Positions 3 to 62,298 of a stretch of DNA of 62,926 bases are shown piece by piece. This DNA is from a virus. A program made the translations under genes and the position numbers. Each line of letters starts with the position of its first letter. Positions within the stretch are counted from its first letter, which is position 1. The notes under the pieces are model-generated. The model saw only the letters and a list, made by a program, of their open reading frames with translations. It had not been told where the DNA came from and searched no databases. Where the stretch lies: positions 1 to 62,926 of IMG/VR virus record IMGVR_UViG_3300025598_002100, one strand, 5' to 3'.

Positions 3-3000
3 ATTAGTGATTGGCATATTAGCTATACCACACACTCTAGTCATGGACCTCGTAGAAATTTTGAGGTTCTCAAAAATAGAATTTTTAATACACGTAACGC
101 AATTAATCGTTGGATAGATTGGGTTGACATTAAAAAGAAAGATCCTAACCTATTCGTTTATAATGCGTCTATTACTAAAGGCATGGTTCCTTTAGTACAA
201 AAGATTTGGCCTAGACTTAAGCAGCAATTACCTAACGCTAAATTAAAGATTATCGGTGGATATTATCGTTTCAATAACGAACCCGTTAGCGAAGCACAAC
301 AGAATTGGATTAATTTACAGAATTCTGTAGCTCATGATAAATCTATCGAATTTACAGGGATTATTCCTCAACCTAAAATTGCGGAAATTATGGCCGAAGC
401 TAGTTATAATCTCTATCCAGGTGCATTTCCTGAAACATCAGGTATTAGTATTATCGAAAGTATTAATTACAATACTCCTGTTATTGGTACAAGATTTGGT
501 GCTATGGAAGAATCGGCTACTGAAGCAGCAGGATATTATATCGACTTTCCGATAGAACCTAATGGACTATTTCCTTGGATTAATACGGATGAACAGGTTA
601 ATCGATATGTTGATCTAGTATTACATGTAGTACGAGATCCTTATCTACATCAACAAAAGCAATATGCTTGTAATGCAGCTAAAGATGTATCCACATGGGA
701 TGCTGTTGCATTACAATGGAAACAGCATTTTTATTACAAATTAGGATTAGAGCTATCTGTTGAAGAACAGGCTACAGTTGACTGGATTAATTATCGAGTA
801 CATAAAGTATTCGGTCGAAGGATCTTAAATCCAGAAGAAGTTATTATACCATTGCCTGCTACAGATCTATCTCCGTTACCGATGCCTCGTGCTAAAATTG
901 CCTTCATTGATATTGTAGGTATGTCCTATGACGGCGATACACTTAATAAAAAGGGTATGGGAGGAAGTGAAAGCGCAGTAATTCTTAATTCTAAAGAATT
1001 AGTTAAACTAGGGTTCGATGTAACAGTTTTTAATGCTTGTGACGAAGGGGATTCTAAACCAGGTATATACGATGGCGTAATCTATCGTCCGTTGTCTGAA
1101 ATTGCAAATGACAAAACTGTTTATCAAGTTGTTATCAGCAGTCGTGTGGTAACTCCGTTTGTTCCGAACCATTATTACAATTATTCACAAACTACAAATA
1201 GAAAAATTGACTATACTGCATTCGAACATATGCGATCAACTGCTAAGTTAAAAGTATTTTGGATGCATGATACATTTTGTTGGGGTGACGATATTTTAGA
1301 AGATTTGGTAGCTATGAACGCTATCGATGAAGTATGGACATTGAGTGATTTTCATACATTCTATGTTATGAATGCAGCACACCCGCGTATGCGTATGTAC
1401 GAAGTATTCCGTAGACATAGTTGGATTACACGAAACGGCATAGTCAAGTATTTCGATTCGGTAGATTTAGATACGAAAGATCCTAACATGTTTATATTCA
1501 ATGCTAACATGAGCAAAGGACTAGATCCTTTATTGAATCTAGTTTGGCCTAAAGTTAAAAAACGTATACCATCTGCAAGATTGACTGTGATCGGAGGCCA
1601 TTACAAATTAGGTGCAGCCTTTGCTCACGACGATGAAGAAACAGAATTTATGAAAATAGCAGGACCTCATTTAAATGATGCTACTATTACATTTACAGGA
1701 ATTGTTGATCAGAAAACCGTTGCAGAGATTTCTGCCAAAGCCAGTTATTTCCTGTATCCTACAGCTTTTCCAGAGACATACGGAATTAGTACATTAGAAT
1801 CACTATATGCTAATACCCCGTTAATTACTTGTAGATTCGGAGCATTGGAAGAAACTGCAAGCCCACAAGGATATCTTATCGATTATTCAGCAACTCCTAA
1901 TAGTCTATTTCCTAATGTTAATGCAGAAGAACAGTCTAATCTTATTGTAGAACAGGTAGTTGCTGCTTATCAAAATAAAACAGAACATCGACGTAGAATG
2001 AAAGCATTAGACGAGATTAAAGACCTAGTAGGTTGGGATGTTGTCGCATTAGAATGGAAGCAACATATCTATGCTAAATTAGGGTTATATCTCAGCAGGG
2101 GTGAAAGTCAACAGGCCTCATATACTAAAAATAAGTATCATAAGATATTTAATCGAAGATTAAGTACCAGCGAAGAATGGCTTGCTCCTAAATTAGGACC
2201 TGAACAAAAGATCGTTGTAATTAGCCCATTCTATAATGCTGAAAAATATATCGAACAATGTATTGCTAGTGTGGCTGCTCAAGATTACGACAATTATGAA
2301 CATTGGTTAATCGATGATGCTAGCACAGATAATGGCCGAAATATTGCATTAAATTATATTAAACAGCTTCCTAAAGAAATACAAAATAAAATTACAGTAG
2401 TACATAATGATGAAAATCGAGGGGCTGTTTATAATCATATGCAAATCATTAGAGATCTCAACCCTGACGATATTATTATGATGTTAGACGGCGATGATAG
2501 TTTGATCAATCGCCCGGATATTTTCGATTATTATAATACTATACATTACAACCATGATTTTACATATGGGTCCTGTTGGAGTGTGATTGATAATATTCCA
2601 TTAATTAGTCAGCCGTACCCGCCAGAGGTGATCGAATCTCGCAAATTTAAAGATTATCGTTTTAATTGGAAAATGCCGTATACTCATCTAAGAACCATGA
2701 AAGCTAAATTATTGTTAGATGTACCAAATCAAGCATTCCAAGACGATAATGGAAATTGGTTTAAGGCCGGTGGAGATAATGCCACCTTCTATAGTGCATT
2801 GTATAATTGCGATCCGGATCGTATCTATGTAGTTCCTGATGTTGTTTATAACTACAATGATGCTAGTCCTTTAAATGATTACAAGGTTAACAAAGAAGAG
2901 CAAGATCGTACAATACAAAATATTTTCGGAGATAACGAAGATAATGTTATTCGGTTGCCGAAGAGAACTGAAATAACTAATACGCCTACAGCAATTACTG

Positions 3001-3629
3001 CACCTGTTGCTAATAAAGGCCCAGTAAAGCGAATTCTAATAGCTATTCCTACTAATAGAAATATCGAAGCACAGACTTTCAAGAGTATATATGATCTAAT
3101 TATACCAGAAGGTTATGATGTAACTTTCCAATATTTTTGGGGATATCAAGTAGATCAAGTACGCAACTTAATTGCACATTGGGTCGTAAATGGCGGGTTT
3201 GATTATCTATTTGCAGTAGACAGCGATATTTCATTTGAAACAGACACATTAGCAAGATTGTTATCACACGATAAAGACATTGTAACCGGCATCTATATAC
3301 AACGTATACCAGGAACTCATGTTATTGAAGTAATGCGAAAAAATGCCCATGGTGGTGTATCGCATGTTGATTGGAATACTATTAAAGGGCGTGGATTGGT
3401 GCCCATTGATGGGTGTGGATTCGGGTGTGCTCTAATAAAAGGTGAGGTTTTTAGAGCAATTCCTTACCCGCATTTCTTATATCACAGTGCGATCGATCAT
3501 GCAAATACTGTTAGTGAAGATGTTCATTTCTGCAATCAAGCTAGAGATAGAGGATTTACTCTTTGGGCAGATACAAATGTGATTTGTGATCATATCGGCT
3601 CATGGACTTTCAAGGTAGATAGAAGTTGA
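3..3629 (+). CDS. Multidomain glycosyltransferase, 5' end outside window
   Basis: The frame is open from the first bases of the window, so the true start lies upstream. The ATG at 183 falls inside a continuing fold and is not a credible start. In order I see the C-terminal half of a GT4-type (GT-B) domain with the signature FPETSGISIIES; a complete second GT4-like domain from about nt 890 to 2190 with GMGGSESAV near its start and FPETYGISTLES near its end; a GT2-type GT-A domain from about nt 2205 with SPFYNAEKYIEQC and the metal motif DGDD; and a fourth GT-A-like domain from about nt 3025 with a VDSD motif. The two GT4 units look like an internal duplication. It probably builds a polysaccharide or glycosylates a virion or host surface molecule. 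Acceptor and sugar cannot be read from sequence. Confidence 0.85.
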   Translation: MSDWHISYTTHSSHGPRRNFEVLKNRIFNTRNAINRWIDWVDIKKKDPNLFVYNASITKGMVPLVQKIWPRLKQQLPNAKLKIIGGYYRFNNEPVSEAQQNWINLQNSVAHDKSIEFTGIIPQPKIAEIMAEASYNLYPGAFPETSGISIIESINYNTPVIGTRFGAMEESATEAAGYYIDFPIEPNGLFPWINTDEQVNRYVDLVLHVVRDPYLHQQKQYACNAAKDVSTWDAVALQWKQHFYYKLGLELSVEEQATVDWINYRVHKVFGRRILNPEEVIIPLPATDLSPLPMPRAKIAFIDIVGMSYDGDTLNKKGMGGSESAVILNSKELVKLGFDVTVFNACDEGDSKPGIYDGVIYRPLSEIANDKTVYQVVISSRVVTPFVPNHYYNYSQTTNRKIDYTAFEHMRSTAKLKVFWMHDTFCWGDDILEDLVAMNAIDEVWTLSDFHTFYVMNAAHPRMRMYEVFRRHSWITRNGIVKYFDSVDLDTKDPNMFIFNANMSKGLDPLLNLVWPKVKKRIPSARLTVIGGHYKLGAAFAHDDEETEFMKIAGPHLNDATITFTGIVDQKTVAEISAKASYFLYPTAFPETYGISTLESLYANTPLITCRFGALEETASPQGYLIDYSATPNSLFPNVNAEEQSNLIVEQVVAAYQNKTEHRRRMKALDEIKDLVGWDVVALEWKQHIYAKLGLYLSRGESQQASYTKNKYHKIFNRRLSTSEEWLAPKLGPEQKIVVISPFYNAEKYIEQCIASVAAQDYDNYEHWLIDDASTDNGRNIALNYIKQLPKEIQNKITVVHNDENRGAVYNHMQIIRDLNPDDIIMMLDGDDSLINRPDIFDYYNTIHYNHDFTYGSCWSVIDNIPLISQPYPPEVIESRKFKDYRFNWKMPYTHLRTMKAKLLLDVPNQAFQDDNGNWFKAGGDNATFYSALYNCDPDRIYVVPDVVYNYNDASPLNDYKVNKEEQDRTIQNIFGDNEDNVIRLPKRTEITNTPTAITAPVANKGPVKRILIAIPTNRNIEAQTFKSIYDLIIPEGYDVTFQYFWGYQVDQVRNLIAHWVVNGGFDYLFAVDSDISFETDTLARLLSHDKDIVTGIYIQRIPGTHVIEVMRKNAHGGVSHVDWNTIKGRGLVPIDGCGFGCALIKGEVFRAIPYPHFLYHSAIDHANTVSEDVHFCNQARDRGFTLWADTNVICDHIGSWTFKVDRS

Positions 3630-3648
3630 AAATACTAATAAATACTGG

Positions 3649-4911
3649 ATGCGTATTAATGAATTATTAGAAGAAAAACAGCCAGAATTTAGAGAAATTT
3701 TAAGAGATTTCTTCCCTTTAGCTAAAAAAATCATAGGATTAGATAGTGTTCCTACTATCAAATTCGTAAAAAGGGTTGCAGATAAACAACAGCCTACTTT
3801 TGGAAAGTTCATAAATGATCAGGGTGTTATCTATTTAGGTATAGAAAATCGACATCCTCTAGATATATTACGCACATTAGCACATGAATTAGTACACTAT
3901 AAACAAGGATTAGAACACCAATTAGACGCAACTAGCGGGCATACTGGTAGTCCTGCTGAAAACCAGGCACATGAAGTTGCTGGCATTGTAATGCGTCATT
4001 TTAATAAAACATATCCTAAATATTTTTCCGCACTTCCGGTTAATCTAGAGGAAGGAAAATGGAATGATTTTAAAAAAGAATTTGTTCGTAAAGGCAAACA
4101 AAGTTTAGCTACCGCTGCAGCAATAGGTGCATTTAGCGGAGGAGTAGCAGGATATGATTATGCTAAACATAAGTTTCAACATCCTCCTACTTATCAGCAG
4201 CAGCAACAGCAGCAACCCCAAAAATTAATACCGTCTGATGATAATGATGACTTTTATAAATCAATGCCTCCGGACGAAACTGTCCCTGACATTGATGTTA
4301 ATCCTCCTAAAAAGGAATTGCCGGTACAGGCTCCATTAAGTCCAGAATATTTTAAAAAATACGTCGAAACACAAAAAAATACTGTCTTTAAAGATCCTAC
4401 AGAAAATGCTCTTAAAAATGCTGCTATGAAAGCAGGAATTGTAGGGTTAGAGCTAGATCAATTTCTCGGTCAATGTGCACATGAAAGTATACAATTTACC
4501 GAATATGATGAAGCTAAGAGAAACGGGCATTGGAGAATGGGCACCGAAACTCTTACAAAAGCATGGTTTTTAGCTAATCGACACTATTGGAAATATAGAG
4601 GAAGAGGACCAATACAAATTACCTTGGAATCTCAATATAAAGCAATCGGTGAATATCTAGGAATAGACTTAGATCATCATCCGGAATTAGCATTATCTCA
4701 AAAATATATGATTCCTATTGCAATTGCTTATTGGAAAATAAATGTGCAAAAACGGGTTCCGAAAGATCAAATGTGGGATACCGGAAAAGTTACTAAAGTA
4801 ATTAATCCTCGTGGATCTCGTGAAGCATTAGAGAAAAGACATCTACTTGTACAACAATTTACTAATTGGTTCAAAGACAAAGTAAAACGAAGCGAAGGAA
4901 AAGGTTCGTAA
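3649..4911 (+). CDS. Metalloprotease / GH19 lysozyme-like fusion, putative virion protein
   Basis: This 420-residue protein joins two lytic-looking domains. Residues about 20-135 carry a zincin motif HELVH at 79-83. Residues about 148-168 form a glycine/alanine-rich hydrophobic stretch, followed by a glutamine- and proline-rich linker near 185-230. Residues about 250-400 resemble glycoside hydrolase family 19 (chitinase/endolysin type), with AHESIQFTEYDE holding candidate catalytic acids and a YRGRGPIQIT substrate-cleft motif. It begins MRINELLEE, like several unrelated proteins here, which could be a capsid-targeting tag cut after LLE. A late-promoter-like TAATAAATA sits only a few bases upstream and no strong ribosome site is visible. 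Peptidoglycan degradation at entry or lysis is inferred; each domain call is moderately secure. Confidence 0.75.
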   Translation: MRINELLEEKQPEFREILRDFFPLAKKIIGLDSVPTIKFVKRVADKQQPTFGKFINDQGVIYLGIENRHPLDILRTLAHELVHYKQGLEHQLDATSGHTGSPAENQAHEVAGIVMRHFNKTYPKYFSALPVNLEEGKWNDFKKEFVRKGKQSLATAAAIGAFSGGVAGYDYAKHKFQHPPTYQQQQQQQPQKLIPSDDNDDFYKSMPPDETVPDIDVNPPKKELPVQAPLSPEYFKKYVETQKNTVFKDPTENALKNAAMKAGIVGLELDQFLGQCAHESIQFTEYDEAKRNGHWRMGTETLTKAWFLANRHYWKYRGRGPIQITLESQYKAIGEYLGIDLDHHPELALSQKYMIPIAIAYWKINVQKRVPKDQMWDTGKVTKVINPRGSREALEKRHLLVQQFTNWFKDKVKRSEGKGS

Positions 4912-4926
4912 TATATAAGGGCTAAC

Positions 4927-7110
4927 ATGAGCCACAATTCTGTTCTGAACATAGATAATTTTGAACAGCTCTTAAATGAAGATAACTTTTCCAATCTATT
5001 ATCTACATTATCTGGTAAAGATAACCTCGAAGATTCTTTACAAAGCTTAGTTAAAAAGAATGAAACTATTGTAACTAAAAAAACAGTTACCGTTGTTGTA
5101 CCTGTAAAAAAAACAGTAGTTGTTACTAAAAAAACAAAATCACTCAAATTAAAAAAAGAAATTGTTGCATTATTAGCAACAGCATTATATGCATCTAGTT
5201 GTGTAGATATTAATGATAATAACTTTAATATACCCATTAATGATCATACTACTACTGAAGAACATTCTACAGATTCAACTACTATAACACCTACTGCACA
5301 TAAGAACGAAACTGTTGTAGAAAAGTTAGCGCATATGTTTTTAATAGGGAAAATTATTAATTCTCTAAAACCTAGTGATATCGATAACACAATGCCTGTC
5401 ATTAATGATCGTAGTGATGAGGATGACGAAGTTAAACAACCTATCGTTACTTTTGATACACGATCTCTAGATGAATTGATGGGCGAAGCTAGATCTTTAT
5501 TACTTGAAAAAAATGGTACATATGATCAAGCAATTGCTGATTTGCGTTCTATTATACTTACTCATCCAAAAGAAGAATCTAGATATGCGCATGAATTATT
5601 AGGATACGCCTACGAGAAATCTAAAAATTTTCCCAAAGCTATGAAAGAATATCAAACTTACTTAGCCTTATATACCGACGATGACGAGGATCGTACTAGA
5701 GTAAGACAGCGTTTAATGTCTTTAGAAATATTAGAACCTTCGGGCTTTGTTATAGGTAAAATTAATAAAACACGCGAGCCGCACCATGGAGATAGTTTTG
5801 ATTTTTCAGGGTCAACATCGGATTACTTATACGCAACTTCAAACTCTACTAGAGGAAGTAATCAGTCAGCAACACAAGTAGATTGGATTACAGGTATACA
5901 AGCCTCTTTAACAGAAGTACATAATCAATATACACTATCATCAAAGTTAAGATTTACTGAGATTAAAGATCTTAGTTCTAGTTCAGGCAATAGAACTAAT
6001 TTAACAACAGCATATGTTGATTTTGCTGATACATTTAAAGGATATAATATTCGTTTAGGCAGACAGTCTAGTATTGCCGGAGCATTAGGAAAATTTGATG
6101 GATTGTCGGGTAGTGTTAAACTTACTGATGATTTAAAATTATCTGCGGCTGCAGGGGTTCCTTATGCTACTGCTGTATCTCAAACTAAAAGAACATTCGA
6201 AGGAGTTGAATTAGAATATAATCTTAATCAAGATTGGACTACAGGAATTTATCTAAACCGTGGAATAGCTGATGGGTTCTTAGAACGTATGGCTATTGGC
6301 AATAATTTAGAATATAAAAATAGAGTAGGTAATATTTTATTAAGAACTGAATATGATACAGTTTATCATAGTCTTAATTTAATTTCTTTGCAAGGAACTT
6401 ATTATACTAAAAATTTCGACATATTTACTGTATTTGAAAGAAGAAAATCACCAATGCCTTATGGAGATGTTGCATTGAATTTAGGAGCATTATCATTAGA
6501 TAAACAAACTTATAATTCAGTCAGCGATCTTATAGGAAAATCCGGTCTAACCACTAATGAAATTTATACTTATATATCTCAATCAACACCTATAGCAACA
6601 TCAGCTATTATAGGTGCTAGAGAAAAGATTTCTCGAAATTGGGAAGCTACAATCGATGCACAAGTTACAAATTTATCAACAATTCCAGGATTTAATTTAA
6701 ACCCAAACTTCGATCCCATTCCTATACAGGTCGGTGATTCAAAAAATTATTCATTAACTGCCCACTTAAAAGGAGATAATATTTTCTTAAAAAATAATAA
6801 CATAGAATTTGTAGTAAATGATTCTACTGGGGGACAAAAATCTTCCTTCTTTACTGTAGCTGATAACTATAAGTTTGGAGATAAGAGTAAGAACAGCATT
6901 TCAACTATTCTTAGATATGACGCAACTGATGCAACTTATGGTAAAATGAGCACTGTATCTGCAGTATTGAGAGGATTCTATGCTTTAAGTGATAAAGGTA
7001 TGCTAGAAGCTCAATATTCACGGTCATTAACTAAAACCAATAACACGCTGTTCCTTAATCCAGACAACACAAATCAAAGTTTTTATATCGGGTATAGATA
7101 TGATTTTTAG
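4927..7110 (+). CDS. TPR plus outer-membrane beta-barrel protein
   Basis: This is a 727-residue protein. The N-terminal 75 residues are charged, rich in Lys/Thr/Val repeats and non-secretory in look. A hydrophobic run ending in a lipobox-like LYASSC lies at about 80-93, oddly far from the start. About 180-265 resembles tetratricopeptide repeats (AIADLRSIILTHP then a YAYEKSKNFPKAMKEY helix pair). From about 290 to the end, alternating hydrophobic/polar strands finish with YIGYRYDF, typical of a C-terminal outer-membrane barrel strand with terminal Phe. Its 3' end overlaps the first cytochrome gene by 11 nt, so the two are co-translated. By analogy it could be a porin partner of the cytochromes (PioB/MtrB-like role) or a BcsC/PgaA-like export porin. 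Neither family is identified with certainty. Confidence 0.65.
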   Translation: MSHNSVLNIDNFEQLLNEDNFSNLLSTLSGKDNLEDSLQSLVKKNETIVTKKTVTVVVPVKKTVVVTKKTKSLKLKKEIVALLATALYASSCVDINDNNFNIPINDHTTTEEHSTDSTTITPTAHKNETVVEKLAHMFLIGKIINSLKPSDIDNTMPVINDRSDEDDEVKQPIVTFDTRSLDELMGEARSLLLEKNGTYDQAIADLRSIILTHPKEESRYAHELLGYAYEKSKNFPKAMKEYQTYLALYTDDDEDRTRVRQRLMSLEILEPSGFVIGKINKTREPHHGDSFDFSGSTSDYLYATSNSTRGSNQSATQVDWITGIQASLTEVHNQYTLSSKLRFTEIKDLSSSSGNRTNLTTAYVDFADTFKGYNIRLGRQSSIAGALGKFDGLSGSVKLTDDLKLSAAAGVPYATAVSQTKRTFEGVELEYNLNQDWTTGIYLNRGIADGFLERMAIGNNLEYKNRVGNILLRTEYDTVYHSLNLISLQGTYYTKNFDIFTVFERRKSPMPYGDVALNLGALSLDKQTYNSVSDLIGKSGLTTNEIYTYISQSTPIATSAIIGAREKISRNWEATIDAQVTNLSTIPGFNLNPNFDPIPIQVGDSKNYSLTAHLKGDNIFLKNNNIEFVVNDSTGGQKSSFFTVADNYKFGDKSKNSISTILRYDATDATYGKMSTVSAVLRGFYALSDKGMLEAQYSRSLTKTNNTLFLNPDNTNQSFYIGYRYDF

Positions 7111-7627
7111 AATAATAGCAATACTTTTTTTATTACTTGTTAGCGATCGTGTATATGGTGCAGAATGTACAGCTTATCAAACATTACATCCTCGCTATCC
7201 ATTAACAGGTGCACATTTAAGTACTGGAAAATGCACTACGTGTTCTTTTTGTCATGTACCAGCAGGCAATGCTGTTTGGATAGGAACTCCAAATACCTGC
7301 ATAGGTTGTCACAACGGAAATCCTAGTATCAATGGCATGGTACGTAGTGCTAAACATCTGCCTACTTTATTATTAGATTGTGCTGGGTGTCATAATACTA
7401 CTGCATTTAATAGTTTCGCAGGAATTACACAAACTATGATCCATAATACTGGATATCCTACTGTTAGATGCGACGGGTGTCATAATGGTAACTATACCTC
7501 ATATAATGCGCAAGGTAAAGGAAACGGTCATCCTACTACTGTAACTAAAAATGGAGTAAAAATTCTAGTTACTAGTGTTGACTGTAATTATTGTCATAGT
7601 CCGAACAGTTCTCAGTTCGATGATTAA
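7100..7627 (+). CDS. Exported multiheme c-type cytochrome (5 CxxCH)
   Basis: This 175-residue protein has a clear signal peptide (hydrophobic core ILFLLLV, cleavage near VYGA). Five heme c attachment motifs follow: CSFCH, CIGCH, CAGCH, CDGCH and CNYCH, with extra histidines between them that could act as distal axial ligands. The mature start AECTAYQTLHP and the segment TGAHLSTGKC are shared with the next gene, so the two are tandem paralogs. Covalent heme attachment would need the host cytochrome c maturation machinery, as no maturation gene is visible here. The start overlaps the barrel gene. Electron transfer in the periplasm or outside the cell is inferred from family knowledge. Such a protein is highly unusual for a phage. 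Confidence 0.85.
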   Translation: MIFRIIAILFLLLVSDRVYGAECTAYQTLHPRYPLTGAHLSTGKCTTCSFCHVPAGNAVWIGTPNTCIGCHNGNPSINGMVRSAKHLPTLLLDCAGCHNTTAFNSFAGITQTMIHNTGYPTVRCDGCHNGNYTSYNAQGKGNGHPTTVTKNGVKILVTSVDCNYCHSPNSSQFDD

Positions 7628-7675
7628 AGCAGAATTTAGGTAAATAAATGTAAACCTTACAGGAGGGCTGCCATC

Positions 7676-8542
7676 GTGCAAAAAATTAAAACACTCTTTA
7701 TGTCTATTATAATGACAATTGCATTAGGAGTATCTTATATTACTGTACCAACAGTAATTGCCGGATCAATGTTGGCATTTTCGGGCACAGCAGACGCTGC
7801 CGAATGTACATTGTATGAAACACTACATCCTAATTTTCCTTTAACAGGTGCACACTTATCTACCGGTAAATGCAGTACTTGTGCCAGCTGCCATGCAGGA
7901 GGTATCTATTTAGGTACTCCTAAAATTTGTGCAACATGCCACAATGGTAGCCCAATCGGACAAATATCTGCTCAAACTATAGGAAGATCAGCTAATCATA
8001 TTCCGATTGGAACTGCTAGTTGTGATTCTTGCCATAATACTACCAGTTTTACAGCATCGTGGTCTATGAATCACGCAAGTGTAAGTAGTTTAGCATGTAA
8101 CACTTGCCACAATGGGTCATATACAGCATACGGTGCTACGGGACAAGATGCTAATCACGCTCCTGAAACAGCTGATTGTGGTGCTTGCCATACAACTCTT
8201 GATACCCCAACACATACTAATGCTGATTGGACTATGTCTCACGCAACAATTCACGCTGGTGTTACAACCGGCTGTGTAAGCTGCCATAATGGTACATATT
8301 TTGAAACTGCAAGTCCTCCGGCATTTGGTAAGAAGGATTATGCTCCTGGTCATCCAGTAACTAGTGACAATTGCGAAACTTGCCATAGTATTAATAACAC
8401 ATTTAAGTGTGCATCTTTAATTGAAGATAAAATGCTTAAGAAAATGATGTCTACACAATTTGCTTGGATTATGCCAAAAAATAAGACAGCAAAATCGACA
8501 ACATTTGCTATGCTGAATATAAAGTTAAATCTTAAGAGCTAA
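7676..8542 (+). CDS. Exported multiheme c-type cytochrome (7 CxxCH)
   Basis: A GTG start follows a strong ribosome site (ACAGGAGGG). The 288-residue protein has a long signal peptide with cleavage near ADAAE, and seven CxxCH motifs: CASCH, CATCH, CDSCH, CNTCH, CGACH, CVSCH and CETCH. Repeats of MNHA, NHAP and CHNG suggest about 35-residue heme units with bis-His ligation. It is a longer paralog of the preceding cytochrome. After the last heme motif, about 50 residues rich in Lys and Met show no heme motif and look unlike the rest; I could not recover a better continuation in another frame. A bidirectional terminator follows directly. Likely an exported electron-carrier chain; its partners are unknown. 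Confidence 0.85.
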   Translation: MQKIKTLFMSIIMTIALGVSYITVPTVIAGSMLAFSGTADAAECTLYETLHPNFPLTGAHLSTGKCSTCASCHAGGIYLGTPKICATCHNGSPIGQISAQTIGRSANHIPIGTASCDSCHNTTSFTASWSMNHASVSSLACNTCHNGSYTAYGATGQDANHAPETADCGACHTTLDTPTHTNADWTMSHATIHAGVTTGCVSCHNGTYFETASPPAFGKKDYAPGHPVTSDNCETCHSINNTFKCASLIEDKMLKKMMSTQFAWIMPKNKTAKSTTFAMLNIKLNLKS

Positions 8543-8552
8543 AAGCCAAAAT

Positions 8553-8576
8553 AAAACGCCCCGAAAGGGGCGTTTT
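8553..8576. terminator. Bidirectional intrinsic terminator
   Basis: Ten-base perfect arms AAAACGCCCC and GGGGCGTTTT around a GAAA tetraloop. Flanking A and T runs make it usable from both strands. It separates the cytochrome gene from the convergent reverse-strand gene. Confidence 0.9.
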
Positions 8577-8619
8577 ACTATCACGAAGTAATTTATTTTT
8601 ATTGTAGGCTATGCCACTT

Positions 8620-8895
8620 TTACTTCTTTGATACGCCGGCATTAACAAACGCATACATCTTTTCTGCAGTAGCTAATACTTGATCTAGACCAGGAAATTC
8701 TGGCATAGCAACGGTAGATACTAATTCTCCAGTCTTTTCGTCTCGCTTAGAGCTTAGTTCCCATCCAGCAAACTTAGCACTATATTCGGCTTCGACAAGA
8801 TCTTTAGCCATACTAAGAATGTCTGTCCTAATTTCGTAACCATTCTTATTAAACTTAACTTCAGGAACTTTTGGTGTGTAATCGTTCAACGACAT
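8620..8895 (-). CDS. Conserved phage-type hypothetical protein, 91 aa
   Basis: A reverse-strand gene with a strong ribosome site (AAAGGAG) before ATG and its own sigma70-like promoter upstream. The protein is soluble, acidic/lysine-rich and begins MSLNDYTPKVPEVKF. No catalytic motif is visible. It resembles small conserved hypotheticals of T4-like phages, but I cannot name a function. Confidence 0.75.
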   Translation of the reverse strand: MSLNDYTPKVPEVKFNKNGYEIRTDILSMAKDLVEAEYSAKFAGWELSSKRDEKTGELVSTVAMPEFPGLDQVLATAEKMYAFVNAGVSKK

Positions 8896-9342: not shown

Positions 9343-9642
9343 GTGCAGAAAAAAACAAAAAGTCTTTTAGATGAATTAAATGATTTTGCTGCTAGAAAAG
9401 ATAAAGAAACTATTCTAGAATCTAGGGCAAGTCATATTATCGATTCGGCTATCAATTTTTTAAAACATATCAGAGAAACATTTGATCCTGAAGTTGCATA
9501 TGAATTAGAAAGACGATTCATTAATAGCATTAAAAGCGGTGATAATGCTAAATTTACACGCGGCATACGTAAAATTAAAGAAAATAAAGAAATTTCACAG
9601 GGTCTCAAGATCATTAATGGTAATGTAAAACATGATGATTAA
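9343..9642 (+). CDS. Hypothetical protein, 99 aa, late gene
   Basis: GTG start with AAAAAGG just upstream and a late-type octamer before it. The protein is helical and highly charged (MQKKTKSLLDELNDF...), with no membrane segment or catalytic motif. It may be a small virion or assembly protein given its late promoter, but the family is not recognised. The stop is followed by a short T-run (GGGTTTTTTTGG) that could be a weak terminator. Confidence 0.65.
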   Translation: MQKKTKSLLDELNDFAARKDKETILESRASHIIDSAINFLKHIRETFDPEVAYELERRFINSIKSGDNAKFTRGIRKIKENKEISQGLKIINGNVKHDD

Positions 9643-13517: not shown

Positions 13518-14240
13518 ATGACTACTCTAAAACCTCCACCGTTTGTGGAAAAATTCCAATACAAAAATTGCAAACAAATAAATGATCCTATAACACGTAA
13601 AAGATTATACGAAACGCCTGATGGAGAACGTATACCTAGTGTCACTACTATTTTAAGTGCAACTAAAGATATGACGCACTTAATTGAATGGAAAAAACGT
13701 GTAGGAGAAGCTAAAGCACAACAAATCACTACAGAAGCAGCCAGTGTAGGAACTGGGCTTCATGCCAATTTAGAAAGATTTCTATGTAATGAACAAAGAC
13801 AACCCGGAAATAATCCAATACACATTAAAGCAAATGCAATGGCTGATGTTATTATTGAATACGGATTAAAATATGTTGACGAAGTTTGGGCAATGGAACA
13901 AAGTCTATACTATAAGGGACTATACTCGGGCACAACTGATCTAGTATGCGTTTATAAAGGTAATCCTTGTATTGCCGATTACAAACAAACCAATCGTCCA
14001 AAGAAAGCAGAATGGGTTGAAGATTATTATCTGCAACTCATGGCGTATATCATGGCCCATAACAATACATATGGAACTGATATGCGTGAAGGACATATCT
14101 TTATGGTTAGTAGGGGTGATGATGGAATGAAGCCTGGTGGAGAGGTATATCAACAGTTTGATCTACTACCAAAAGATTTTAACAAATATCAAGATATGTG
14201 GCTTGATAGAGTTGAAGAATATTACAAATTAACTAAGTAA
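13518..14240 (+). CDS. PD-(D/E)XK exonuclease (RecB/Cas4-like fold)
   Basis: A 240-residue nuclease. The core is GTTDLV, then IADYKQTN (catalytic Asp and D-x-K), then YYLQLMAY, a QxxxY motif. This order matches the RecB-family exonuclease fold. An upstream IPSVTTIL and GTGLHANLERFL helix fits the GxxxH motif of phage exonucleases. It is expected to degrade or process DNA ends during replication or recombination, or to destroy host DNA. It has its own early-type promoter amid late genes and lacks a ribosome site, suggesting leaderless expression. Confidence 0.8.
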   Translation: MTTLKPPPFVEKFQYKNCKQINDPITRKRLYETPDGERIPSVTTILSATKDMTHLIEWKKRVGEAKAQQITTEAASVGTGLHANLERFLCNEQRQPGNNPIHIKANAMADVIIEYGLKYVDEVWAMEQSLYYKGLYSGTTDLVCVYKGNPCIADYKQTNRPKKAEWVEDYYLQLMAYIMAHNNTYGTDMREGHIFMVSRGDDGMKPGGEVYQQFDLLPKDFNKYQDMWLDRVEEYYKLTK

Positions 14241-16425: not shown

Positions 16426-18756
16426 ATGATTACTGTTGTAAAAAGAAATGGGGAGAAAGTACCTCTAGATATTTCCAAAATTCAGAGGCAGGTAGCACAC
16501 GGATGTAGCGGTATAGATGGAGTAAGCCCATCTATGATTGAGATTAAAGCTCAATTAGAACTACACGATGGTATGAGTACAAAAACTATAGATGAGCTAT
16601 TATTAAAAGCTATGGTTAATCTCATTGACGAGAATGAGAATCCTGAAATCAACAATACCAATTATCAATATGTAGCAGGCAGACAGCGTGTTAGTATGTT
16701 GCGTAAAGAAGTATATGGAGAATATGAACCTCCTAAGCTCTATAGCATTGTTAAAACCAATGTTGAAGCAGGTATGTATACTAAAGATTTATTAAATTGG
16801 TATACTGAGGATGAATGGAATATTATTGACTTATTCATTGATCATAGCAAAGATGAAAATTACACATTTGCTGCGATTGAACAGTTGGCAGAAAAGTATC
16901 TAGTTCAAAATCGTGCCACTGGGCAAATCTATGAAACACCACAAGTTCGGTATGCTGTTGCTGCCGCTACTGCGTTTCATGCTGAGCCAAAAGATATCAG
17001 ATTGAAACTAGTAAAGGAGTATTATGAATGCGCGTCAGAAGGACAGTTTACTTTGGCTACTCCTGTTCTTGCGGGCCTTGGGACCACTACTAAGCAGTTT
17101 AGTAGCTGTGTACTTATTAGTTCGGATGATACATTAGATAGCATCTTTGCCAGCGGCGAGATGATGGCCAAATATGCTAGTAAACGTGCTGGTATTGGAT
17201 TGGAATTAGGTCGTATCAGGCCAGTTGGCGCTCCAATACGCAATGGGGAGATTAAACATACAGGATTGGTGCCATTTTTAAAGAAATGGTTTGCAGATCT
17301 TCGCAGTTGTAGTCAAGGTGGCATTCGTAATGCTAGTTGCACTGTAACTTTTCCCATTTGGCATGCACAGTTTGAAGATCTAATTGTATTGAAGAACAAT
17401 CAAGGTACAGAAGAAACTCGTGTTCGACAGATGGATTATTCTGTAGTTGTATCTGCGCTCTTTTGGCGCCGCTATAAGAATGGAGAAAATATTACATTAT
17501 TCGATCCACACGAAGTTCCGGATTTATACGAAGCATATTACCGCAACAGTCAGGAATTTGAAAAACTATATCTTAAATATGAACAAGATAAGACTAAGAA
17601 AAAGAAAGTTTTGTCTTCAGAAGAAGTTTTTAAAAATGGTATACTTAAAGAACGTACAGATACTGGCCGTATCTATCTTGTTAATATCGATAATGTGATT
17701 AATCAAGGTCCATTTAATTCGACAACTGACCCAATCTATCAAAGCAATCTTTGTCAAGAAATCTTATTACCTACTCGCCCATTTCAACGTATCGACGATG
17801 AATCAGGACGCATCTCTCTTTGCACATTGGGGTCTATTAACTGGGGTGCATTCCGTAATCCCGCCGATATGCGAAAGGCTTGTCGAATATTAGTTCGTAG
17901 TCTAAGTAATTTGCTTAACTATCAAGATTTTCTTAGTGTGCAAAGCCGATTGGCTAATAAAGAATTTGAACCATTGGGTGTGGGTATTACTAATCTGGCA
18001 TTTTGGCATGCCAGAAAGAATTTAAAATACGGCGACCCGGAAGCACTAGCAGAAGTTAAACGATGGACTGAACATCAAGCATTTTATCTTACAGAGATGA
18101 GTGTAGAACTTGCTCGTGATCGTGGTGCTTGTGAACGAAGTCATTATACCTATTATGGACAAGGAATATTTCCTTGGGAACGCCGTAATAAGAATGTTGA
18201 TGAATTAACTAATTTCGAACCAAGTGCTAATCTCGATTGGGAAGGATTACGTAATGATATGAAAACATATGGAATACGTAATGCTACTTTAATGGCTATT
18301 GCTCCGGTTGAATCGAGTAGCGTTGTGCTTAATAGCACTAATGGCATCGAGATGCCGATGGAATTAATTAGTGTCAAAGAAAGCAAGGCCGGATCATTTG
18401 TACAGGTCGTTCCTGAATATAAACGTTACAAAAATCGTTATCAATTAATGTGGGATCAAAAAGACTGTGTAGAATATCTTAAAACAGCAGCAGTATTAGC
18501 TGTATACATTGATCAAAGTATTAGTACTAATACGTTTTATTCGCCGAAACATTTTAAAGATGGAAAAATTCCTGCTACATTAGTTGCTAAAAACCTTATG
18601 TTGGCATACAAATGGGGGGTCAAAACTATCTATTATTCGTTAATAGATAAAATTGGCAGCAAAAATGTGTTAAATAGCCAAAATGATCGACTTTCAACTT
18701 CAAAATCTATTATAATACAAGAAGATGAATCGGATTGTGATTCATGCAAACTTTAG
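16426..18756 (+). CDS. nrdA: Ribonucleoside-diphosphate reductase class Ia, large subunit
   Basis: A 776-residue protein, of normal length for NrdA. An N-terminal ATP-cone (TVVKRNGEKVPLDISKIQRQ) provides allosteric control. The catalytic barrel has the redox cysteine pair in FSSCVLIS and GRISLCTLGSINWG and the thiyl-radical cysteine in NLCQEILLPT. The C-terminal tail DCDSCKL holds the CxxC that passes electrons from glutaredoxin. It reduces NDPs to dNDPs with NrdB for phage DNA synthesis. nrdB and a glutaredoxin follow, with a homing endonuclease between. A GGTAAATA late-like element upstream is a weak match. Confidence 0.97.
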   Translation: MITVVKRNGEKVPLDISKIQRQVAHGCSGIDGVSPSMIEIKAQLELHDGMSTKTIDELLLKAMVNLIDENENPEINNTNYQYVAGRQRVSMLRKEVYGEYEPPKLYSIVKTNVEAGMYTKDLLNWYTEDEWNIIDLFIDHSKDENYTFAAIEQLAEKYLVQNRATGQIYETPQVRYAVAAATAFHAEPKDIRLKLVKEYYECASEGQFTLATPVLAGLGTTTKQFSSCVLISSDDTLDSIFASGEMMAKYASKRAGIGLELGRIRPVGAPIRNGEIKHTGLVPFLKKWFADLRSCSQGGIRNASCTVTFPIWHAQFEDLIVLKNNQGTEETRVRQMDYSVVVSALFWRRYKNGENITLFDPHEVPDLYEAYYRNSQEFEKLYLKYEQDKTKKKKVLSSEEVFKNGILKERTDTGRIYLVNIDNVINQGPFNSTTDPIYQSNLCQEILLPTRPFQRIDDESGRISLCTLGSINWGAFRNPADMRKACRILVRSLSNLLNYQDFLSVQSRLANKEFEPLGVGITNLAFWHARKNLKYGDPEALAEVKRWTEHQAFYLTEMSVELARDRGACERSHYTYYGQGIFPWERRNKNVDELTNFEPSANLDWEGLRNDMKTYGIRNATLMAIAPVESSSVVLNSTNGIEMPMELISVKESKAGSFVQVVPEYKRYKNRYQLMWDQKDCVEYLKTAAVLAVYIDQSISTNTFYSPKHFKDGKIPATLVAKNLMLAYKWGVKTIYYSLIDKIGSKNVLNSQNDRLSTSKSIIIQEDESDCDSCKL

Positions 18757-25376: not shown

Positions 25377-25682
25377 ATGTCGGCAATTAACACGTTGTAT
25401 TCTCTGGAACAGTTTTGTCTAGATTCTAGTGGCTTTGCAGAACGTTGGCAAGGTAACAGTGCATTCTATCAGTGGAATAAAGGTAAAACTACCGAAGAAG
25501 GTATTATTAATGGTGTTGTACGTAAACTAGCAGGAACAGATACATCAGGGAATGAGATTTGGGTTGTTGCTGGATCTTTTAAGATTGCTGCTAATGGAGA
25601 AATTCTTCGATTTACTGGCATTAGCAAAAAGCAATGGGATATTATTCAGGTATTGCCTGCTAAGGATACTATTGCAGCATAA
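25377..25682 (+). CDS. Hypothetical protein, 101 aa
   Basis: A small soluble protein (MSAINTLYSLEQFCLDSSGF...) with a beta-rich centre (GNEIWVVAGSFKI). Strong promoter and ribosome site; its stop overlaps the next start (TAATG). Function unknown, but coupling to the ferredoxin-FAD oxidoreductase suggests a related pathway. Confidence 0.65.
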   Translation: MSAINTLYSLEQFCLDSSGFAERWQGNSAFYQWNKGKTTEEGIINGVVRKLAGTDTSGNEIWVVAGSFKIAANGEILRFTGISKKQWDIIQVLPAKDTIAA

Positions 25683-26983
25683 TGGAATTTTTAATTTATT
25701 TGGCATTTATTTTAATTGTTATTGCGATTTATCTTTATAAAAAACGCAAAAAACATAAAAAATCTATTAAAATATTAGAAGAATCTGTAGAAGCAGGCTT
25801 AACTGAGCCTGTTTCTCTACATCCTATTATTGATCAAGATCTTTGCATCGGTTGCGGCAGTTGTGTTATAGCTTGTCCAGAAAGCCATCACCATGTATTA
25901 GGTATGATTGCTCATAAAGCGGTATTGGTAAACCCTACCGAATGTATCGGGCATAGTGCCTGTAAAGCTGCTTGCCCAATGGATGCGATCACCGTAGTAT
26001 TCGGTACTGCTCGACGCGGGGTTGATTTACCGGTAGTGAAGCCCGACTTTGAAACTAATATTCCCGGGCTCTATGTTGCCGGAGAATTAGGTGGCATGGG
26101 ATTAATTAAGAATGCACTAACACAAGGAAGAGAAGCTGTTGAAAATATTAGTAAGAATAATGAACGTGATCAAAACCAGTTTGATCTTATCATTGTTGGC
26201 GGTGGGCCTGCTGGAATTGGCGCAGCTTTTACTGCAATTAGTGAAAAGCTTAACTATCTGATACTTGAACAAGATTCGTTAGGTGGAACAGTTTTTAAAT
26301 ATCCCCGCAGAAAATTAGTTATGACACAACCGGTTACATTGCCTGTTATTGGTAAAATACATTTTAGAAATACCACCAAAGAAGAACTATTAAACTTTTG
26401 GGATGAACAACGTCAACGACATAACTTAAATTTTAAATTTAATGAACGTGTAGAGAGCGTAGTTAAAGATAATACAGGATTTATTGTTACTACTGCACTA
26501 GGTACATACCGTGCCACTAATGTATTATTATCTATCGGAAGACGAGGCAGTCCTAGAACACTAGGAGTCCCTGGTGAAGAATTACCAAAAGTAGTTTACA
26601 GACTTATCGATCCTGAACAATATAAAGGTGCGCATGTGTTGGTAATCGGAGGCGGTGATAGTGCGCTAGAAGCTGCTGCTAGTGTTGCTGAAGCAGATCC
26701 TAATAACCATGTTACTTTATCATATCGTGGTACAGCTTTTCAAAGAGCTAAACCCGCTAATAGGCGCCGTGTTGAAGCTGCTGTTAAACAAGGAAATTTA
26801 GAAATTATACTTAATTCTAATGTACAGCAGATTGGTGAAGATTATGTTATTCTCCAAATTGGTAAAGACGACTTGCGCATTATAGAGAACAATGCTATTA
26901 TTGTTAATGCAGGCGGTATTTTACCAGATGCGTTTTTGAAAAAGTGTGGCATTGAAGTTGTAACTAAATGGGGTACAGAATGA
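25682..26983 (+). CDS. Membrane-anchored ferredoxin-domain FAD/NAD(P) oxidoreductase
   Basis: A 433-residue protein. Residues 1-18 form a membrane anchor (FLIYLAFILIVIAIYLY). Residues about 52-110 carry two 4Fe-4S-type motifs, CIGCGSCVIACP and CIGHSACKAACP; the second has His at the second position, which I believe is usual for this family. GLYVAGELGGMG follows. From about 165 there is an FAD-binding GGGPAGIGAAF and, near 320, an NAD(P)-binding GGGDSALEAA, as in thioredoxin-reductase-like enzymes. It should shuttle electrons between NAD(P)H, flavin and iron-sulfur centres at the inner membrane. It is a plausible donor for the bilin reductase or the cytochromes, but that link is inference. Confidence 0.85.
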   Translation: MEFLIYLAFILIVIAIYLYKKRKKHKKSIKILEESVEAGLTEPVSLHPIIDQDLCIGCGSCVIACPESHHHVLGMIAHKAVLVNPTECIGHSACKAACPMDAITVVFGTARRGVDLPVVKPDFETNIPGLYVAGELGGMGLIKNALTQGREAVENISKNNERDQNQFDLIIVGGGPAGIGAAFTAISEKLNYLILEQDSLGGTVFKYPRRKLVMTQPVTLPVIGKIHFRNTTKEELLNFWDEQRQRHNLNFKFNERVESVVKDNTGFIVTTALGTYRATNVLLSIGRRGSPRTLGVPGEELPKVVYRLIDPEQYKGAHVLVIGGGDSALEAAASVAEADPNNHVTLSYRGTAFQRAKPANRRRVEAAVKQGNLEIILNSNVQQIGEDYVILQIGKDDLRIIENNAIIVNAGGILPDAFLKKCGIEVVTKWGTE

Positions 26984-51127: not shown

Positions 51128-52187
51128 TATTAGCTCCGGTAAAATAATTAAACCAAATTTTTCTGGTTTTATTTGTATACTTATCTAAATTTGTTTGATT
51201 TCTCCAGACATTAAGTTTTGGATAATGATAAGCTCGTAACATCATATCAGCAATATTGTCGCTATTGGTTGGATCCGCATTAAAAAACTTTGTTGCCCAA
51301 GGTATTTCTTTAGATCCAACAATTGGCACTCCTTGACTAATCAAGTCAGCACTAACAATATTAAATGTTTCACTAAAATTGCATTGTAACCCGATATCCA
51401 TTCCTGCACAAATTTTAAGGAATTCTTCTCTAGGAGTCCATTCGTGTACTACCATTTGATGACCGTGTTCTTCGATATGCTGAAATAAGGCCTTTAGATT
51501 GTTCATTACAGGATCGCCCTTCATTTCTATGCGGCCGCCGTTAATATGAAATCTTAATTGTTTTCCAACATTATTAGCAAATTTCAAAGAAGCAAACGCC
51601 TGCAATAAATGATTCTTTAATGGTCTAACCGCACCAAAACATGCAACATCGACCCAATATTTACTTGTATCAAATGACTTTATTTTATAGTCTTTTGGGT
51701 AATAATTAGGCATATAAAATACTCTACGTGCAGTTTCTTCTTTTGACCACTGTTGTTTGATACGTAAGTATGTCTGTACTTCATCTAACATTCTAGGAGC
51801 ATTTACTCCGATATCGATGTTAGGATGAGTTACATAATCACCTATCCAATCCATAGCCATACCTTCACCGGCCATAAATGGCATTTCACTATGTAAACGA
51901 ATAATCCAACGCACTTTAGGATGTAATTTAGTAAGTATAGCAAATTTACTAGGCACTACCCATAGTGCTTCAATAATAACGTGAGTAGGACGGTGTTTAG
52001 TAACTAACCTGTCAATACAATTGTTATCAATTGCGATTTCGAGTTCAGCATTAATTCCATCTTCTATTAACATATCTTTCATAAAAGTAGCGGAATTGTA
52101 CAGCCCTGTACTAAGACCTCTCGGGCTGTGGGCGACAGCATTATAATCCTCTCGTCTCTTGAGAATGAATAAAATTTTTGTAGACAT
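51111..52187 (-). CDS. Glycosyltransferase, GT-B type
   Basis: A 358-residue protein. The C-terminal half has a GT4-like nucleotide-sugar pocket: CAGMDIGLQCNFSETFNIV followed by SQGVPIVGSKEIPW. The N-terminal half has RGLSTGLYNSATFM and IIEALWVVPSKF. A reverse-strand TATAAATA at 52214-52221 provides a late promoter. Probably modifies a phage or host glycan; the donor is not identifiable. Confidence 0.75.
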   Translation of the reverse strand: MSTKILFILKRREDYNAVAHSPRGLSTGLYNSATFMKDMLIEDGINAELEIAIDNNCIDRLVTKHRPTHVIIEALWVVPSKFAILTKLHPKVRWIIRLHSEMPFMAGEGMAMDWIGDYVTHPNIDIGVNAPRMLDEVQTYLRIKQQWSKEETARRVFYMPNYYPKDYKIKSFDTSKYWVDVACFGAVRPLKNHLLQAFASLKFANNVGKQLRFHINGGRIEMKGDPVMNNLKALFQHIEEHGHQMVVHEWTPREEFLKICAGMDIGLQCNFSETFNIVSADLISQGVPIVGSKEIPWATKFFNADPTNSDNIADMMLRAYHYPKLNVWRNQTNLDKYTNKTRKIWFNYFTGANNETQS

Positions 52188-52213
52188 AGGAATCTCTCGG
52201 TGGTTACAACCAA

Positions 52214-52221
52214 TATTTATA
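52214..52221 (-). promoter_or_regulatory. T4-late-type promoter octamer (exact)
   Basis: TATAAATA on the reverse strand, 26 nt before the glycosyltransferase start codon at 52187. Confidence 0.6.
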
Positions 52222-52255
52222 TTTTAATATATTAACTTTTGATTACTTTGATCGG

Positions 52256-52537
52256 TTAATCTCTACGAGCATCGTTCTTTCCATCAGCTCTAGCTATGCG
52301 ATCGATATCCGGTTTCAACCCAAGTGCATTAGATACTAATGTATCAATTCTAATAACATCGTGATTCATAGTTTTAACACGATTATCTAAAGCGGTAATA
52401 ATACCCTTCATTCCATTAACACTACTAGTTACTCCAGCTAAGATAAATTTTAATGTTAAAAATACAAAATATCCTCCAGCACATGCCGCTGCAATTGGAA
52501 ATCCTAATTGTGCTACTAAATTAAAAAATTGATCCAT
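52256..52537 (-). CDS. Small membrane protein, holin-like paralog
   Basis: A 93-residue paralog of the 50613-50936 protein: hydrophobic N-terminus (FNLVAQLGFPIAAACAGGYF) and a charged helical tail (DNRVKTMNHDVIRIDTLVS). The TAGGAATAAAA before ATG is a weak ribosome site. A lysis role is possible but unproven. Confidence 0.6.
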   Translation of the reverse strand: MDQFFNLVAQLGFPIAAACAGGYFVFLTLKFILAGVTSSVNGMKGIITALDNRVKTMNHDVIRIDTLVSNALGLKPDIDRIARADGKNDARRD

Positions 52538-61455: not shown

Positions 61456-62298
61456 ATGAATAATTTAACTATCGTAGCTGTAACTACAGTAAAACATGCT
61501 TTAACTAGCAAAGCAATTGAACAAGCAGTGCAAGTAACTAATTCAAAGAATGTATTAGTTATTAGTGATCAAGACTTATATCCCGGATCTGTTCATATAG
61601 ATACAGATCCTCTCTCTATTAGAGATTATAGCGAGATAGTATTTCATAATCTAATCGACTATATCGAAACAGATCATTTTATGATGGTCCAATACGATGG
61701 AATGCCAACTGATGCTACATTTTGGGATAATGACTATTTGAAATATGATTATATCGGTGCAGTTTGGCCATGGGCACCCGAAGGATTAAATGTTGGTAAC
61801 GGTGGATTTAGTATTAGAAGTCGAAAATTATTAGAAGCCTGCCAAACATTACCATTTGGATTAGAAGAATTTGGTAAAGACAAAGATATTGAAGATGCAA
61901 CTATTTGTCGTTATTATAGAAAAACGTTAGAACAGCAAGGAATACAATTTGCTACAAGTGATTTGGCAAAAAAGTTTTCTGCAGAATTACCTGGAGGAAA
62001 ATTCGACACATTCGGGTTTCACGGTACATTATGTCTACCATTTTATTTAAATGATGTTCATATGGAATTTTATATCAATAATATGACAGATCAAATGTTA
62101 AACGATCCTATACAAATCAGAATTGCATATGGTTTGTTTAAAGCAGGCAAATATTATCATTTAGAAAATTTTATGGATCATGCGGTATCGTTAGTTCCGA
62201 ATTTTAAACAAATATTATTGAATCAATTTCCGCAAGACAACAAATTTTTTCCGGAATTTAGTTTAAATGATTTGGAAAGTTTGTTAATTAACTATTGA
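61456..62298 (+). CDS. DUF5672-type glycosyltransferase-like protein
   Basis: A 280-residue protein with DHFMMVQYDGMPTDATFW, YIGAVWPWAPEGLNVGNGGF and SIRSRKLLEACQ, then DIEDATICRYYRK. This series is characteristic of DUF5672, a GT-like family in polysaccharide and phage gene clusters. The C-terminal 60 residues look helical (PIQIRIAYGLFKAGKYY). Last gene of the glycan island. Confidence 0.82.
   Translation: MNNLTIVAVTTVKHALTSKAIEQAVQVTNSKNVLVISDQDLYPGSVHIDTDPLSIRDYSEIVFHNLIDYIETDHFMMVQYDGMPTDATFWDNDYLKYDYIGAVWPWAPEGLNVGNGGFSIRSRKLLEACQTLPFGLEEFGKDKDIEDATICRYYRKTLEQQGIQFATSDLAKKFSAELPGGKFDTFGFHGTLCLPFYLNDVHMEFYINNMTDQMLNDPIQIRIAYGLFKAGKYYHLENFMDHAVSLVPNFKQILLNQFPQDNKFFPEFSLNDLESLLINY

What the first reader, a model, noticed from the sequence alone, without database searches (positions are those of the whole stretch)
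4927..8542. Phage-encoded exported multiheme cytochromes behind a TPR/outer-membrane barrel gene
Seen directly: two tandem secreted proteins with 5 and 7 CxxCH motifs and shared start AECT..TLHP, directly coupled to a gene with TPR-like repeats and a barrel C-terminus (terminal Phe). Multiheme cytochromes plus a barrel are known from bacterial extracellular electron transfer (MtrA/MtrB, PioA/PioB type). Inference: the phage may install a redox conduit or heme-protein fibre in the host envelope, or put heme proteins on its virion. I know of no phage with such a module.
Basis: partly seen in the sequence, partly recalled or inferred. Interest (0 to 1): 0.92.

Follow-up and report, generated by a model that had tools for sequence, protein, structure and literature searches.

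The report
Phage genes for an extracellular-electron conduit
A large freshwater phage, and at least a dozen relatives, carry genes for a compact 'electrical wire' through the bacterial cell envelope (outer-membrane pore, two multiheme cytochromes and, in several, an inner-membrane haem protein) related to a known but untested bacterial system called PCC3, which suggests that phages may rewire how infected bacteria breathe.

Summary
In detail: 4927-8542 encodes a TPR plus 22-strand outer-membrane barrel, a 5-heme and a 7-heme exported cytochrome c. It is not chimeric. The module recurs in 21 other IMG/VR contigs (about 14 lineages). Five of the large ones (179-369 kb) also carry a T4-type portal gene. 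Haem motifs and distal histidines are invariant and dN/dS is 0.04-0.23.

The closest known system is not MtrAB/PioAB but PCC3, a putative porin-cytochrome conduit of Proteobacteria. Bacterial relatives of the barrel lie beside multiheme cytochromes in 20 of 21 loci, and in 12 beside the PCC3 inner-membrane protein and a 24-27-heme cytochrome. Six phage contigs encode a half-size version of that inner-membrane protein with both WX3HX13H motifs and SGxxG; by synteny it should lie just past this window's end. The window itself encodes the FAD/4Fe-4S oxidoreductase found beside PCC3 (25682-26983, 51% identical). One Methylophilaceae chromosome carries the same three genes.

Best explanation: a compact, phage-borne PCC3-like conduit that lets infected methylotroph-type hosts exchange electrons with extracellular acceptors or donors. 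It is not a strict PCC3 member: the 21-27-heme periplasmic wire is absent and haem numbers are small. Direction, expression and activity are untested.

The parts
4927..7110 (+). Outer-membrane porin gene of the module: N-terminal extension, hydrophobic export segment, TPR domain, 22-strand beta-barrel with terminal Phe
   Evidence: relatives; profile A10 finds bacterial relatives beside multiheme cytochromes
5467..5733 (+). TPR domain (aa 181-269), expected in the periplasm; probable docking site for cytochromes (role inferred)
   Evidence: Pfam TPR_16 E 3.6e-5, helices in the AF2 model
5794..7107 (+). 22-stranded beta-barrel (aa 290-727)
   Evidence: AF2; Foldseek finds only generic outer-membrane porins and ushers
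7100..7627 (+). 5-heme exported cytochrome c (signal peptide, then AEC...; 5 CxxCH and exactly 5 other His in the mature chain)
   Evidence: starts 11 nt before the end of the barrel gene
7661..7667 (+). Shine-Dalgarno-like AGGAGGG before the GTG start of the 7-heme gene
   Evidence: sequence
7676..8542 (+). 7-heme exported cytochrome c (7 invariant CxxCH, 7 invariant non-motif His, 3 invariant extra Cys)
   Evidence: related to PCC3 extracellular multiheme cytochromes
8550..8579 (.). GC-rich inverted repeat between the module and the convergent gene, terminator-like (scored on the - strand)
25682..26983 (+). Membrane-anchored FAD / 2x[4Fe-4S] oxidoreductase, 51% identical over 429 aa to the oxidoreductase beside bacterial PCC3 genes; the proposed cytoplasmic electron entry or exit
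   Evidence: 87% and 83% identical copies in related phages G001 and G003
3649..4911 (+). Phage flank: endolysin-like gene directly upstream
   Evidence: phrog_181 endolysin E 7.8e-18
9343..9642 (+). Phage flank: virion structural protein family downstream
   Evidence: phrog_11854 E 1.8e-19

Best explanation
The three genes are the outer half of a compact, phage-encoded porin-cytochrome electron conduit of PCC3 type. The barrel is inserted in the host outer membrane. The 5- and 7-heme cytochromes are exported by Sec, loaded with haem by the host's Ccm machinery, and dock on the TPR/barrel so that a bis-His haem chain passes through or over the outer membrane. The inner half is a small two-b-haem membrane protein (present in six phage contigs; expected about 1.3-1.9 kb past this window's end) and a membrane-anchored FAD/4Fe-4S oxidoreductase (25682-26983). 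Together they would link the NAD(P)H or quinone pool of the infected cell to an extracellular electron acceptor, probably humic substances or Fe(III), or in reverse to a donor. I lean about 60:40 to outward flow, which would keep the host respiring while the phage replicates in low-oxygen humic water. Shown here: genes, homology, intact ligands, selection, gene linkage. Inferred: assembly, electron flow, direction, benefit.
For: Multiheme proteins with all haem motifs and 7+7 (or 5+5) His ligands kept across phage lineages, even where the last 5-heme motif changed to CX4CH or CX5CH. dN/dS 0.04-0.23. Barrel relatives in bacteria sit beside multiheme genes in 20 of 21 loci, and in 12 beside the inner-membrane protein plus a 24-27-heme gene, the PCC3 layout described in PMC5566968. 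Phage inner-membrane proteins carry two WX3HX13H and SGxxG, the published PCC3 signature. They are adjacent to the module in L009, L024 and L037, and on the same contig in G001 and G003. The FAD/4Fe-4S partner is in the window. The same three genes are in a Methylophilaceae chromosome that elsewhere has the oxidoreductase, inner-membrane protein and a 27-heme gene. The 7-heme profile matches PCC3 extracellular cytochromes (best-domain scores mostly 44-106 bits) better than periplasmic ones (10-27 bits).
Against: No biochemical proof that PCC3 itself moves electrons; in Sideroxydans ES-1 both PCC3 clusters go down on Fe(II) (PMC8788666). No phage contig encodes the 21-27-heme periplasmic wire, so the periplasmic gap must be bridged by the host or by the small cytochromes. 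The inner-membrane protein was not found in several contigs, including the long G007 and G009. The barrel clade is distinct from the PCC3 porins. AF2 of the 7-heme protein is uninformative. No ccm genes in the phages. No expression data.
Confidence: 0.72

Rival explanations
1. Same conduit, but run inward: electrons from Fe(II), reduced humics or a partner cell enter via the porin and cytochromes to the quinone pool or to the FAD/4Fe-4S oxidoreductase, making reducing power for nucleotide synthesis.
For: PCC3 was proposed in Fe(II) oxidisers with donor-to-quinone flow (PMC5566968); the phages carry ribonucleotide reductase, which needs reductant.
Against: PCC3 genes fall on Fe(II) in ES-1; the lake literature argues for humics as acceptors for Methylotenera (PMC6344600). 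Sequence does not decide direction.
Confidence: 0.27
2. The barrel is an envelope-modifying or superinfection-exclusion protein; the cytochromes are passengers or plugs that alter the surface, without electron transport.
For: Phages do encode outer-membrane barrels (one search lists phage porins).
Against: Every haem motif and distal His is kept, two more redox genes travel with it, and bacterial relatives are tied to multiheme clusters.
Confidence: 0.07
3. Virion component: haem proteins decorate the particle or tail.
For: The neighbours include a virion structural protein family.
Against: Signal peptides, a TPR-barrel and an inner-membrane b-type partner are envelope, not virion, features; the bacterial chromosomal copy has no virion genes around it.
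Confidence: 0.03
4. Haem or iron store, or detoxification of periplasmic oxidants, rather than a through-membrane conduit.
For: Small c7-like multiheme proteins can act as electron capacitors (general knowledge, not tested here).
Against: Does not explain the dedicated porin with 11-nt gene overlap, also kept in the Methylophilaceae copy.
Confidence: 0.06
5. Chimeric assembly or contaminating bacterial DNA in the virus set.
For: The window is a metagenomic fragment without portal or terminase hits.
Against: Same locus in many independent contigs; colinear with a 328-kb contig that has portal and terminase genes (57 of 77 ORFs match).
Confidence: 0.01

Closest known systems
PCC3 porin-cytochrome c complex (He et al. 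2017, PMC5566968; Gallionellaceae survey PMC10734462)
   Same: Homologous TPR-barrel porin; a cytochrome homologous to the extracellular multiheme subunit; inner-membrane protein with two WX3HX13H and SGxxG; the linked FAD/4Fe-4S oxidoreductase
   Different: Haem numbers 7 and 5 instead of 10-85; no 21-27-heme periplasmic cytochrome; inner-membrane protein half the size and sometimes 60-67 kb away; porin in a separate clade; carried by phages
MtrAB / MtoAB / PioAB
   Same: Works alike: barrel plus periplasmic multiheme cytochrome
   Different: No MtrB/PioB family hit, no decaheme cytochrome, MtrB not among the best 50 Foldseek matches
OmbB-OmaB-OmcB (Geobacter)
   Same: Porin plus multiheme layout
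   Different: 8- and 12-heme subunits; homology not tested directly, no family hit
c7-type 'nanowire' cytochromes (PDB 3ov0, 3ouq; GSU1996 by my recollection)
   Same: Best solved-structure sequence match to the 7-heme profile (E 8.7e-6, partial)
   Different: More haems (12 in the whole protein, from memory), no porin partner
Phage auxiliary genes for photosynthetic electron transport (cyanophage photosystem genes)
   Same: A phage supplies electron-transport parts to the host
   Different: Those act in photosynthetic membranes; no phage-borne extracellular electron transfer was found in the papers searched

Membership tests
PCC3 | beta-barrel porin of the PCC3 family | tested here: met
   Profile A10 matches bacterial barrels at E 1e-31 to 1e-80; 12 of 21 lie in full PCC3-like clusters. 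Tree: phages plus one bacterial copy form a separate 100/100 clade.
PCC3 | extracellular multiheme cytochrome with many haems (10-85 reported) | tested here: not met
   A homologous protein is present but with only 7 haems, plus a 5-heme paralogue
PCC3 | periplasmic multiheme cytochrome of about 21-27 haems | tested here: not met
   None in the window or in eight relatives' contigs scanned whole; contigs may be incomplete
PCC3 | inner-membrane protein with two WX3HX13H and SGXXG | tested here: met
   Met in the phage contigs of L009, L024, L037, L052, L053, motifs also in L135; not within this window, expected just past its end by synteny with G001
PCC3 | genes in one cluster | tested here: inconclusive
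   Clustered with the inner-membrane protein in L009, L024, L037; 60-67 kb apart in G001 and G003
PCC3 | electron transfer across the envelope | not testable with these tools
   Not shown biochemically for bacterial PCC3 in the papers read either
MtrAB/PioAB/MtoAB | MtrB/PioB barrel family and DmsE-type decaheme cytochrome | tested here: not met
   No Pfam or NCBIfam match to either; 5 and 7 haems
OmbB-OmaB-OmcB | octaheme plus dodecaheme cytochromes with OmbB porin | not tested
   No direct comparison made; haem numbers differ
c-type multiheme cytochrome (bis-His) | CxxCH motifs, export signal, one distal His per haem | tested here: met
   7 motif and 7 other invariant His over 11 sequences; 5 and 5 in the small one; AxA-AEC or G-AEC signal sites by eye
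c-type multiheme cytochrome (bis-His) | covalent haem attachment in vivo | not testable with these tools
   Needs haem stain and mass spectrometry

The most novel reading that the evidence does not exclude
Large T4-like phages carry a complete, self-contained route from the cytoplasm (FAD/4Fe-4S oxidoreductase) through the inner membrane (two-b-haem protein) and the outer membrane (5- and 7-heme cytochromes in a TPR-barrel), and so install extracellular respiration in cells that lacked it, making infected methylotrophs respire humics or iron.
Probability: 0.4. Interest if true: 0.96.

Novelty: new variant of a known kind. Interest (0 to 1): 0.88.

Why it matters
Phage auxiliary genes are known for photosynthesis, methane oxidation and sulfur, but the searches here found no report of a phage-borne conduit for extracellular electron transfer. 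If it works, viruses would affect whether cells in humic, iron-rich or oxygen-poor water can use external electron acceptors or donors, which bears on carbon, iron and methane budgets. The compact phage version (7+5 haems, 150-aa inner-membrane part) is also a far simpler test object for the PCC3 family, whose function has been open since 2017.

Tried and rejected
(1) Known phages: no tblastn match in 50,697 phage records for the barrel or the 7-heme protein; no PHROG. (2) Pattern scan of genome contigs with the barrel found nothing. This was a false negative of the pattern method: the profile search later found 21 bacterial relatives besides the Methylophilaceae one among 399 genomes of the order. 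(3) AlphaFold2 of the 7-heme protein failed (pLDDT 38), so no haem geometry. (4) Foldseek of the barrel gives only generic porins and ushers with TM below 0.5, so no special tie to MtrB. (5) Alignment A12 contained a cytochrome row by mistake and was not used. (6) Promoter scan at chance level (28 found, 27.4 expected); no TATAAATA late-promoter word directly upstream of the module. (7) Other weak bacterial hits of the cytochrome (L041-L044, L046) are large multiheme proteins with no barrel of this family noted; L045 turned out to be a barrel beside a 65-heme gene. (8) ccm genes sought in the phages: none. (9) My notebook says 13 of 20 loci with the inner-membrane protein; the recount is 12 of 21.

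Full report
What is there. Three genes on the + strand: a barrel gene 4927-7110, a 5-heme cytochrome 7100-7627 that starts 11 nt before the end of the barrel gene, and a 7-heme cytochrome 7676-8542 behind a strong ribosome-binding site. The motif counts in the finding are exact and far beyond chance. Flanks are phage: endolysin-like 3649-4911, virion structural family 9343-9642, exonuclease 13518-14240, ribonucleotide reductase 16426-18756. GC of the module (about 0.32-0.37) does not differ from its surroundings.

It is real and widespread. Scans of IMG/VR give 21 further contigs: identical copies (L003-L005), a 71% group (L006-L008), L021, and 328-kb, 326-kb, 179-kb, 266-kb and 369-kb contigs (L010, L009, L023, L025, L038), plus L024, L027, L037, L123, L124, L126, L127, L131. 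Five of the large contigs carry a T4-type portal and four a terminase C-terminal domain. The window is colinear with part of the 328-kb contig G003 (57 of 77 ORFs match). The core is barrel plus 7-heme gene; the 5-heme gene is missing in L024, L027 and L038.

The cytochromes look functional. All 7 CxxCH and exactly 7 further His are invariant in 11 sequences. The small protein has 5 motifs and 5 other His, and its last motif drifts between CX2CH, CX4CH and CX5CH without loss. dN/dS lies between 0.04 and 0.23 for all three genes. Three extra Cys in the 7-heme protein are invariant, one near the C-terminus; their role is unknown.

The barrel. AlphaFold2 gives a TPR block and a 22-strand barrel. 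Foldseek shows only that it is an outer-membrane barrel. A profile search found relatives in 21 of 398 other genomes of the order of the Methylophilaceae genome, and in fewer across the phylum. Of 21 bacterial loci examined, 20 have a multiheme gene beside the barrel. Twelve have the string inner-membrane protein, 24-27-heme cytochrome, 10-62-heme cytochrome, barrel, and three of these also have a FAD/4Fe-4S oxidoreductase within the stretch fetched. Three bacterial barrels checked have the TPR part too. This is the PCC3 layout of He et al. 2017 (PMC5566968), whose inner-membrane protein is defined by five helices, two WX3HX13H motifs and SGXXG.

The other PCC3 parts in the phages. A 145-160-aa membrane protein with both WX3HX13H motifs and SGxxG lies directly beside the module in L009, L024 and L037, and on the same contig in G001 and G003. 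A collection scan with it returned mostly the same contigs. The window ends before it: the last shared ORF (61456-62298) matches L134:7294-8142, and the gene starts at L134:10001. The window's 25682-26983 is the PCC3-linked oxidoreductase, 51% identical to bacterial copies over its length, with 87% and 83% copies in G001 and G003 and none in the other phages tested. No phage contig scanned has a 20-plus-heme cytochrome or ccm genes.

Origin and host. A Methylophilaceae chromosome (JABFRO010000001, 2.0 Mb) has 7-heme, barrel and 5-heme genes together, with the same 11-nt overlap. It was the only one of 187 family members with a close 7-heme match and the only one of 399 in the order. Elsewhere it has the oxidoreductase, inner-membrane protein and 27-heme gene. 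In the barrel tree it joins the 13 phage sequences in one 100/100 clade apart from 18 PCC3-type porins, so phage and methylotroph lineages have probably exchanged the module; the direction is open. Methylotenera with putative porin-cytochrome genes occur in a humic bog lake, where humics are proposed as electron acceptors (PMC6344600). A Methylophilaceae host is therefore likely but not proven. Peat-bog phages also carry a haem-precursor synthase gene (PMC11480375).

Mechanism and limits. Homology, linkage, ligand conservation and selection are shown. Assembly into one conduit, direction of flow and benefit to the phage are inferred. PCC3 itself is untested biochemically in the papers read, and is not induced by Fe(II) in ES-1 (PMC8788666). 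The phage set lacks the long periplasmic wire, so it either uses the host's or spans the gap with its two small cytochromes.

Verdict. A new, compact, phage-borne variant of a PCC3-type porin-cytochrome system. It works like an extracellular electron conduit by all sequence evidence, but fails two defining PCC3 features (haem number, periplasmic wire), so it should not be filed as a strict PCC3 member.

Noticed in passing
L009:287-4854 (326-kb phage contig): Shortly upstream of the conduit genes: two secreted curlin-repeat or CsgB-like proteins, a FecR-domain protein and a CHASE2-adenylate/guanylate cyclase; looks like an amyloid or signalling operon in a T4-like phage.
   Followed up: partly
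window 4927-5200: About 75-85 conserved residues precede the export segment of the barrel only in the window clade and L009; L024, L027, L037, L038 and L040 have an ordinary N-terminal signal peptide. Role unknown.
   Followed up: partly
L052:1457-2050 and L053:912-1493: A 193-197-aa secreted protein, by eye an outer-membrane barrel (ends ...HSF), sits just before the inner-membrane protein gene in two phages.
   Followed up: no
G006 (contig of L037) 51669-52310: A further exported 4-heme cytochrome, apparently of another family, in the 166-kb contig.
   Followed up: no
window 7676-8542: Three invariant non-haem Cys (residues 44, 66, 245), an odd number; an intermolecular disulfide is possible.
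   Followed up: no
window 25682-26983: PHROG labels this protein's best family 'ribonucleotide reductase large subunit', but it is a FAD/4Fe-4S oxidoreductase; the label looks wrong.
   Followed up: yes
window 3-3629: Very large multidomain glycosyltransferase (two group-1 domains plus a family-2 domain), open at the 5' end.
   Followed up: no
window 8620-8895 (-): Small convergent protein right after the module, 93% identical to the 328-kb contig's copy while the module is 62-73%.
   Followed up: no
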